Shown here piece by piece: positions 4,340 through 7,207 of a DNA stretch of 64,000 nt; within the stretch, counting starts at the first letter, position 1; every line of letters starts with the position of its first letter. The notes under the pieces are model-generated. The model saw only the letters and a program-made list of their open reading frames with translations. It searched no databases and was not told where the DNA came from. Position numbers and translations under genes: made by a program. Origin of the DNA: Myotis daubentonii (taxonomy: Eukaryota; Chordata; Mammalia; Chiroptera; Vespertilionidae); the NCBI RefSeq assembly GCF_963259705.1, contig NC_081840.1, forward strand, positions 152,952,282-153,016,281. Direction: 5' to 3'.

Positions 4340-4835
4340 CAACAAGATGGAACAAGAAATGCCATAGTAAAGATAATACATGACAATATTGCCCATTATA
4401 CAGCCCCGTCCCATGCCAGGCAGCTGCTTGGGGGAGATGACAAAATAGAGCTGATGTATAACTGAATAAAAGTAAAAACAGCACACTAAAATTTGCTAAA
4501 GTAGATTTTAGAGGGAAACTAATAGCAACAAATGCTTATATTAGAAAAAAAGGAAAGTTCTGATGTCAATGAGAAAATTGCATGCCTTAATAAACTAGAC
4601 CAAGAAGTGCAGAATAAGTGTGAGGTAAATATGAGGAAGGAAATAATAAAGATAAAGGAAGAAACTAACTCAATTAAAAATAAGGAAAACAAGTAAATAA
4701 CAGAATCCAAAAGCTGGCTCTTTAAAATGATGAGAGAAACTGATAAATCTGCATCTGAAATAATGAATAAACTAAGAAAAGAAAAAAAATATTAGTACTG
4801 GGAATGAGAGTATGGGCATCAGATACCAGGGTTAA
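4340..4835 (+). mobile_element. LINE-1 ORF2 fragment (sense)
   Basis: The sequence follows the mammalian LINE-1 ORF2 segment upstream of the reverse transcriptase: TTTTAGAGGGAAACTAATAG, then GCTTATATTAGAAAA, AAAAGCTGGCTCTTTAAAA and GGGAATGAGAGTATGGGCAT. The frame is broken by stops and indels, so it is a fossil. Homology stops exactly at 4835 and resumes at 5879 after a Helitron, so both halves belong to one insertion. The left edge is approximate. Confidence 0.75.
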
Positions 4836-4909
4836 TCTCTCTATATATAGAAGGCTAATATGCTAAGTGTCCCTCCATCAGTCTGACTGGTTGGTGTGGT
4901 GCACACTGA

Positions 4910-4922
4910 CCACCAGGGGCAG
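4910..4922 (+). promoter_or_regulatory. CTCF-like motif in Helitron
   Basis: CCACCAGGGGCAG lies inside the Helitron 5' region. It resembles the CTCF core but is one G short of the usual spacing, so it is probably weak. The inverted partner seen in related copies is absent here. Confidence 0.4.
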
Positions 4923-5117
4923 ATGCTCAATGCAGGAGCTACCGTGACACGCACTGACCATTTACAGAGAAACGTACCGTGGACCTGGCACCCACAAAGC
5001 AACACTCAGCTTCCCCCAAGTGGGACACAGGCCCCGCCACCACCCCAGAGCGACAGCCCACCAAATTGCAGCCAACTCTCATGGCCAGCCCAGAAACAGT
5101 CGCTGTGGGCGCAGAGC

Positions 5118-5154
5118 GGGGGCGGGGGGTGGGGGGGGGGAGTAAATGACGTCA
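5118..5154 (+). promoter_or_regulatory. GC box and CRE-like palindrome in Helitron cargo
   Basis: GGGGGCGGGG (Sp1-type GC box) at 5118-5127 and the full CREB/ATF palindrome TGACGTCA at 5147-5154 lie 19 bp apart across a G-rich run. This pairing is typical of CpG-island promoters and unusual in the surrounding AT-rich DNA. Promoter activity is inference only. Confidence 0.45.
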
Positions 5155-5264
5155 CATAGCAATGCCTAGCTTCCTCTCCCTAGCTACGACTAGCCTCCTT
5201 GCAGTTTCTCCAGCCCAAGAACATGACTGCTTTATAGCCAGGTGCAAACATTTACACTTTAACC

Positions 5265-5440
5265 AAATGTCTGTGAAGCGTTTTCCCATGCCTCATCTCA
5301 TTTGATCCTCACAGAAGTCCTGGAGTAAGTAGATAGCAGACTCAGTGGAATCCTATTTTCTTTTCATTAGCCGGAAAATGGAGATTTAGAAAGCTTAGAA
5401 GCTTGACCCGACTGAAAAGAAGTAAGAAACAGTAGACCTT
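5265..5440 (-). mobile_element. MIR-like SINE inside Helitron cargo
   Basis: CATCTCATTTGATCCTCACA and the following AGTAGATAG...GGAAAATGGAGA correspond to the reverse complement of the mammalian MIR core and 3' half. MIR is older than the LINE-1 this block interrupts, so it must have arrived as passenger DNA. Confidence 0.55.
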
Positions 5441-5664
5441 GAAAATGACTTCAGGTTTTCTCACTGAGCAGAATATAGTCAAACACTGTTGCAGTTAAAT
5501 ATTTAACCTTTTGTTCTCCCTGAGTGATCTACAATAATACTCTTCTGTGTGTTGATATTTACTGTTGTGTTGCTGACAATTACCTGAAAGAGAAGTTGGG
5601 GTGCTTCACTGGGCTGGAAAAAGTTTAGCTAAATCACAAAGCAGGTCTAATTAAGCAAGTTGAT

Positions 5665-5878
5665 TCTATATCTATAAAAGGCTAAGTTGCCTCGTGCATT
5701 CACAATACATATAAAGCTCTCTCTGGTGCCAATTGCATGTGTGTGTATTGATCTGTTATTGTCAATCATGAATTTGGTTGACACTTCTATTACAGAGAAA
5801 GGGTGGATAGCAATATTAAAATATTTCTTCTAATTAATTTTCTTTCAATGTGCATGAACTCATGCACTGGGCCACTAG
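5665..5878 (+). mobile_element. Short Helitron unit supplying the 3' end
   Basis: The 214-bp unit starts TCTATATCTATAAAAGGCTA and ends in the hairpin plus CTAG at 5875-5878. The interior is AT-rich and unlike the GC-rich type A elements, with GAAAGGGTGGATAGCAATAT, so it is a separate short subfamily. Confidence 0.75.
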
Positions 5879-6205
5879 TAAAATAATAATAAGGGGGAAA
5901 TAATTCTATACCAATAGAGGAAACACAAATTCCTTAGAAGATTAAAATTACCAAAGCTCATTTAAGAAAAGCGTGCATAACCATATAGCTATTAAAGAAA
6001 TTAAACTTTTAGTTAATACATTCCCCACAAACCTTGACCTACAGTTTCAGTAGTGAATTCTATCAAACATATAAGGAAAAATAATATCAATTCTACCCAT
6101 ACACTTTATTTTATAATTCTAGACTTTGCCTGACATTAAACCATAAAAACACACTTAAGAAGGTGAAATAGTAGAGAATTACCCTTCATCAATGCAGACT
6201 ACAAC

Positions 6206-6910: not shown

Positions 6911-7207
6911 TCTATACAATAAAAGCCTAAGCGACTGTTACAGCAGAATGACCACAACGACTGGTCTCTGTGATGCACACTGACCACCAGGGGCAGATGT
7001 TCAATGCAAGAGCTGGCCCCTGGTGGTCAGTGTGCTGCCACAGGGGGAGTGCCACTCAGCCAGAAGCCTCTCCTGCCTCTGTGGCAGCACTAAGGAGCAG
7101 CGAGCAGGTGGGCGGTAAGGAGTGAAGGCTCCGGGACTGTGAGAGGGCGCAGGCCGGACTGAGGGACCCCCCTCCCTGTGCACGAATTTTGTGCACCGGG
7201 CTTCTAG
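6911..7207 (+). mobile_element. Helitron, type A, complete ends
   Basis: The 297-bp element starts TCTATACAATAAAAGCCTAA after an A and ends in the hairpin GTGCACGAATTTTGTGCAC plus GGGCTTCTAG before a T, as expected for insertion between A and T. It interrupts LINE-1 DNA. It contains an inverted pair of CTCF-like motifs and encodes no protein. Confidence 0.93.
6984..7026. promoter_or_regulatory. Inverted pair of CTCF-like motifs
   Basis: CCACCAGGGGCAG at 6984-6996 faces its reverse complement at 7014-7026, separated by 17 bp. Both lack one G compared with the best-matching copies elsewhere. The arms extend outward as ACACTGACCACCAGG and its complement, so the pair can also form a DNA hairpin. 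Confidence 0.5.

What the first reader, a model, noticed from the sequence alone, without database searches (positions are those of the whole stretch)
4836..5878. Helitron that seems to have captured about 0.5 kb of host DNA by read-through
LINE-1 ORF2 homology stops at 4835 and resumes at 5879, so the whole 1,043 bp is one insertion site. It begins with a Helitron 5' end without its own 3' end, continues into non-Helitron DNA with a MIR-like SINE older than the LINE-1, and stops at the 3' end of a second Helitron. This fits the read-through model, in which the terminator is missed and a downstream Helitron end is used.
Basis: partly seen in the sequence, partly recalled or inferred. Interest (0 to 1): 0.85.

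Follow-up and report, generated by a model that had tools for sequence, protein, structure and literature searches.

The report
Composite bat Helitron carrying host DNA
This stretch is one copy of a large family of rolling-circle transposons in a bat-like genome that long ago picked up about half a kilobase of host DNA together with a whole second small transposon; it is a good example of a known process, not a new capture at this spot.

Summary
Window 4836-5878 is one clean insertion in an old LINE-1 (A4835|TC...CTAG5878|T5879); a LINE-1 paralogue runs straight through the site. The element has three parts: a Helitron 5' part (H1, 4836-~5139), host DNA with a MIR fragment (~5140-5664), and a complete small Helitron (H2, ~5665-5878) with its own 5' end, 3' hairpin and CTAG.

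It is not a capture made here. All 40 scored genome hits (one is this copy) carry the same unit, in a long and a short form, in differing sites. A 17-base cargo word occurs 1,346 times. Among 20 copies sampled in listing order, 19 share the cargo's left edge behind H1 and 19 have H2. H2 also exists alone. The capture therefore happened once, in an ancestor, and was amplified.

Read-through from an H1 copy lacking its terminator, across host DNA, to the terminator of a downstream H2 is the best mechanism (about 0.64). It is inferred: no pre-capture donor was found, two genome searches did not complete, and no other mammal was available. Host-DNA capture by bat Helitrons is already documented, so this is a member of a known kind.

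The parts
4430..4835 (+). Old LINE-1 ORF2 sequence, left of the insertion
   Evidence: (matches LINE-1 ORF2p residues 321-389, E 0.0022)
4836..4877 (+). H1 5' end (TC...AAGGCTAATATGC), present in both long and short forms of the family
4878..5139 (+). H1 body, GC-rich, present only in the long form; 4885-4940 is shared with another Helitron at 6959-7014
5140..5664 (+). Cargo: non-Helitron host DNA; same left edge in 19 of 20 sampled copies
5274..5330 (-). MIR SINE fragment inside the cargo (approximate)
   Evidence: recalled MIR consensus; 0 of 300 shuffles reach the score
5665..5878 (+). H2: complete small Helitron, own 5' end TCTATATCTATAAAAGGCTAAG (or TC at 5671 after A5670), body and 3' end; exists alone elsewhere
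5850..5878 (+). 3' hairpin GTGCATGAACTCATGCAC and terminal CTAG
5879..6205 (+). LINE-1 resumes at the target T

Best explanation
The 1,043-bp element is one copy of a Helibat-type Helitron family, apparently non-autonomous, with composite structure: H1 5' part, 0.52 kb of host DNA with a MIR, and a complete H2 Helitron. The insertion is a normal Helitron insertion between A and T in a LINE-1 (shown). Sampled copies share both internal joints (shown), so one ancestral locus made the combination and was then amplified (inferred from shown facts). Most likely that locus had an H1 copy without its 3' end, then ordinary host DNA, then an H2 Helitron. Rolling-circle transfer began at H1's 5' TC, found no terminator at H1, ran through the host DNA and the whole of H2, and stopped at H2's hairpin and CTAG (inferred). 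The transposase would have come from an autonomous Helibat (inferred; the cargo has stops in all six frames). A later change of the H1 body gave the short form, which shares the same cargo edge (order inferred).
For: All 40 scored genome hits carry this unit: the window's own, 24 other long and 15 short copies. Read by eye, of the 39 non-window copies 26 show a 5' TC, with A before it in 22; 33 keep CTAG, with T after it in 31. One search's cruder parser gave A in 25 of 30 and T in 34 of 36. Same-side flanks gave 21 similarity rows among 1,560 pairs, most at different offsets. The cargo word occurs 1,346 times, reversed-pattern control 0. In 20 sampled copies, 14 are long, 5 short, 1 lacks H1; 19 have H2, three of them beyond a nested insert. 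H2 alone without cargo: 8 of 25 pattern hits, three with A|TC...CTAG|T intact. Helraiser experiments give capture of flanking DNA in about 11.7% of events, at least 36% without the hairpin (PMC4778049, section 11 read in full).
Against: No donor locus was found; the search at the cargo's 5' edge did not complete. The base before the inner 5' end is T in the common form (T5664|TC5665), not the usual A, although TC at 5671 does follow A5670. Window elements 36830-36515 and 20394-20170 pair an H1-like 5' part with an H2-like 3' end, so both ends could come from one related group. H1 positions 1-306 differ more among the 25 long copies than cargo or H2 (about 0.10 against 0.045-0.048 without CpG), which a single clean amplification would not predict, though poor alignment of that GC-rich part may explain it. 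Solo H2 could be a deletion product of the composite instead of its parent. In three of eight fetched copies with an altered cargo end (L075, L076, L079) H2 was not seen in the stretch fetched.
Confidence: 0.64

Rival explanations
1. Internal capture in a single Helitron: a break inside an H1-type Helitron was repaired by copying host DNA that ran into an H2 element, rejoining in the 3' end that the two Helitron types share.
For: H1-like 5' parts and H2-like 3' ends occur together in two other window elements with unlike middles. The filler-DNA model is supported for insect Hel1 Helitrons (PMC6544945, passages read). H1 shows no missed terminator.
Against: It needs the copied DNA to run exactly into a complete H2 including its 5' end and to rejoin without a scar; read-through gives that for free.
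Confidence: 0.2
2. Two-step origin: a Helitron already carried the cargo and a more distal 3' end; H2 then inserted at the cargo end, and later copies stopped early at the H2 terminator.
For: The cargo/H2 border is TA-rich and repeatedly hit by later insertions. H2 was not seen in the stretch fetched for L075, L076 and L079 nor within 2 kb for L102, apart from a 29-base 3' end match.
Against: 127 of the 1,346 word copies lack the standard H2 text at the tested place. The 15 bases shown for the 100 listed reveal no recurrent alternative continuation on inspection, and of 8 fetched 5 have H2.
Confidence: 0.12
3. Independent insertions of H1 and H2 into ancestral host DNA at this locus.
For: H1-like and H2 Helitrons do exist separately.
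Against: LINE-1 is continuous across the site and the same three-part unit sits in differing sites.
Confidence: 0.01

Closest known systems
Helibat non-autonomous families of vespertilionid bats (HelibatN1-N3 and others)
   Same: 5' TC, 3' CTAG with hairpin, insertion between A and T, high copy number; HelibatN3 at least carries host cargo (PMC4778049, passages)
   Different: Sequence identity to any named family could not be tested: no Repbase or Dfam library was available
HelibatN3 (NUBPL promoter capture)
   Same: A Helibat family that arose from a capture of host DNA and was then amplified
   Different: The recalled NUBPL start MGIWQR is not seen in the six frames of this cargo; here the cargo ends in a complete second Helitron. 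The N3 sequence itself was not compared
Helraiser read-through products and de novo 3' ends in Myotis (PMC4778049)
   Same: Transfer past or without the normal 3' end, stopping at a downstream terminator
   Different: As far as the passages seen say, those are experimental insertions and single exemplars; this is an amplified family with the second Helitron kept whole

Membership tests
Helibat-type Helitron | 5' TC and 3' CTRR ends | tested here: met
   TC at 4836, CTAG at 5875-5878; by eye, 26 of 39 other copies keep a readable TC and 33 of 39 keep CTAG
Helibat-type Helitron | Insertion between A and T without target duplication | tested here: met
   A4835|T5879; LINE-1 paralogue continuous; A before TC in 22 of 26, T after CTAG in 31 of 33 (by eye)
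Helibat-type Helitron | Short palindrome near the 3' end | tested here: met
   7-bp-stem hairpin 7 bases before CTAG; z -2.13, 7 of 200 shuffles as good
Helibat-type Helitron | Mobilised by RepHel transposase | not testable with these tools
   Mobility inferred from copies; no transposase tested
HelibatN3 | NUBPL promoter and first codons as cargo | tested here: inconclusive
   Recalled NUBPL start not seen in six frames; the N3 sequence itself was not available
Read-through (3' transduction) capture | Cargo lies between a Helitron 5' part and the 3' end of a downstream Helitron | tested here: met
Read-through (3' transduction) capture | Donor locus with H1, host DNA and H2 in place, or pre-insertion host DNA | tested here: inconclusive
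   3' side: no clean donor in 8 fetched of 127 places; the 5' side search did not complete
Filler-DNA capture | Source locus with short end homologies to the acceptor | not tested
   No source locus was found to compare

The most novel reading that the evidence does not exclude
The composite has two stacked 5' ends feeding one terminator. Starting at the outer end moves the whole unit; starting at the inner end releases H2 alone. The solo H2 copies would then be by-products of the composite, giving a natural test of how often a Helitron chooses an inner start.
Probability: 0.15. Interest if true: 0.5.

Novelty: new member of a known kind. Interest (0 to 1): 0.36.

Why it matters
A family with well over a thousand copies that keeps the first 5' part, the host stretch and the whole second Helitron with its own 5' end is a clear fossil of a two-Helitron junction. 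It makes the donor locus searchable across bats and other mammals, and so lets read-through and filler-DNA capture be told apart on a natural case.

Tried and rejected
Donor search on the cargo's 3' side: a pattern that demands the cargo end without two A's of the H2 start gave 127 places, 100 listed. Many of the short strings read as nested Helitrons, SINEs, microsatellites or changed TA length. Eight were fetched: H2 is seen in L077 (internal part), L078, L080 and L081; in L074 it follows further on; in L075, L076 and L079 it is not seen in the stretch fetched, which goes into other repeats. L074/L082 looked promising because it lacks H1, but cargo position 213 abuts what looks like LINE-1 and H2 follows after about 300 bases of other DNA, so it is most simply a damaged copy. 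The genome searches for cargo without H1 and for H1 body without cargo did not complete. In the 337 kb held, the script flagged two H1-body hits without cargo: a fragment near L101/L107, and L093, which does adjoin cargo by its own listing. Age of solo H2 against composite H2: 0.058 (n=8) against 0.042 (n=14) and 0.046 (n=17), Mann-Whitney p 0.16, not decisive. Tree of 25 long and 15 short copies: star-like and mixed, does not say which form is older. Two papers on bat Helitrons (PMC1794268; doi 10.1093/gbe/evu204) are not held.

Full report
What is there. The flanks are an old LINE-1. A search with the joined flanks (502 bases) returned the window's own two halves plus diverged LINE-1 copies; 40 of 49 candidates were scored. 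One alignment at C23:95.7407 Mb spans query 52-268, across the joint at 250. Full local alignment of that locus has no gap at the joint. A second locus, C4:206.637 Mb, also runs through, with 5-6 base gaps close to the joint. At protein level the left flank matches LINE-1 ORF2p residues 321-389 (E 0.0022) and the right flank 448-492 (E 1.3, weak alone). The 1,043 bases are therefore one insertion.

It is a family. A genome search with the element scored 40 of 5,295 candidates: the element itself, 24 other long copies at 82-86% identity, and 15 short copies at 89-90% over positions from about 305-312 to 1043. In 13 of the 15 short copies a separate match to the first 34-44 positions lies just upstream. 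Read by eye, of 39 non-window copies 26 show a 5' TC (A before it in 22) and 33 keep CTAG (T after it in 31). The parser gave A in 25 of 30 and T in 34 of 36, but some of its 5' starts are not true ends. Same-side flanks gave 21 similarity rows among 1,560 pairs. Most lie at different offsets; L014, L044 and L047 are near register because each sits behind the 3' end of another Helitron. The 40 scored are the best-scoring, so ages from them are biased low.

How many. The 17-base word CTAATTAAGCAAGTTTA at the cargo's 3' end occurs 1,346 times, against 0 for the reversed pattern. With several per cent divergence, several thousand copies are likely (inference).

Sample in listing order. I fetched 20 of the first 21 listed places of that word, all on contig C1, skipping one that one search showed with an altered border. 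H1 of long type is present in 14, of short type in 5, and absent in 1 (L089, where the cargo starts at position 480). The cargo starts at consensus position 1-4 in the other 19. H2 is present, whole or in part, in 16 within the fetched stretch. It lies beyond a nested insert in 3 more (L083, L091, L096). In 1 (L102) only a 29-base match to the H2 3' end was found in the next 2 kb. Both internal joints are thus shared, so the combination formed once.

The 3' part is a whole Helitron. The cargo is followed in the consensus by TTCTATATCTATAAAAGGCTAAGTTGAC, which matches the Helitron 5' end TCTATATATATAAAAGGCTAA at 20 of 21 places. A pattern requiring this start with the aligned cargo bases changed gave 25 places. 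Eight hold H2 without any cargo (L049, L052, L053, L054, L059, L062, L069, L070), and L052, L062 and L070 read A|TC...CTAG|T. Solo and composite H2 consensus sequences differ mainly at CpG-prone positions and in the 5' TA run (A in 8 of 8 solo, C in 36 of 57 composite at one place). With CpG, TpG and CpA places left out, one C/T-variable position differs. The commonest border form is TTTATTCTATATCTATAAAAGG: 13 of 50 border strings parsed, a set that includes the loci picked for an altered border. The base before TC there is T, but the TC six bases further in follows A, so the exact H2 start is unsettled.

The host part. The cargo consensus is 523 bp. Its minus strand resembles MIR at 134-190 (score 44.5; best of 300 shuffles 32.5; consensus recalled). 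All six frames carry stops. No gene was identified.

H1. Pieces of the first ~110 bases, mostly 50-110, occur in other window Helitrons without cargo. Elements at 36830-36515 and 20394-20170 (minus strand) pair an H1-like 5' part with an H2-like 3' end and unlike middles. I saw no Helitron 3' end between H1 and cargo in the consensus. Among long copies, H1 positions 1-306 are about twice as diverged as cargo and H2 even without CpG sites (0.104 and 0.097 against 0.045 and 0.048). Poor alignment, base composition or mixed origins could each explain this. Long and short copies do not separate on a tree of the shared part.

Mechanism. A Helitron that lacks or misses its 3' hairpin reads on to a later terminator. 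This was shown with the reconstructed bat Helitron Helraiser: about 11.7% of events with the intact element captured flanking DNA, and at least 36% without the hairpin carried the neighbouring cassette (PMC4778049; section 11 read in full; other passages). Passages of the same paper report 39 of 395 copies of three recent Myotis subfamilies with new 3' ends, and HelibatN3 as an amplified capture of a NUBPL fragment. The present element fits: H1 without an end, host DNA, then a complete H2 whose terminator serves the unit. The main rival is filler DNA, supported for insect Hel1 (PMC6544945, passages). I put read-through at about 0.64.

What was not shown. No donor locus was found and no other mammal genome was available. 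The genome searches for cargo without H1 and for H1 body without cargo were repeated many times and never answered. Whether the family already has a Repbase or Dfam name was not testable. In the listings of four paper searches and the passages read I saw no description of this composite, but the full texts were not read and two key bat Helitron papers are not held.

Verdict. It is a new member of a known kind, possibly already catalogued.

Noticed in passing
window 6911-7207 (+): A second complete Helibat-type element (A|TCTATACAATAAAAGCC...CTTCTAG|T) about 1 kb downstream.
   Followed up: partly
window 36830-36515 (-) and 20394-20170 (-): Small Helitrons with an H1-like 5' part, an H2-like 3' end and different middles; the second abuts the 3' CTAG of another Helitron directly (20395|20394).
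   Followed up: partly
cargo/H2 border of the family, e.g. L083, L086, L091, L096, L097: The TA-rich border is a repeated target for later insertions, Helitrons in both orientations among them, and for microsatellite growth.
   Followed up: partly
L101/L107 (C1:25.242 Mb): A composite copy whose H2 is cut short and continues into a 20-base palindrome CCAGGACACTAGTGTCCTGG and an H1-body fragment with an inverted repeat.
   Followed up: partly
L082 (C1:65.145-65.149 Mb): Copy without H1: LINE-1-like DNA abuts cargo position 213, and about 300 bases of unknown DNA separate cargo from H2.
   Followed up: partly
window about 5147-5154: The cargo begins with TGACGTCA, which matches the recalled cAMP-response element; whether the cargo is a captured promoter is unknown.
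   Followed up: no
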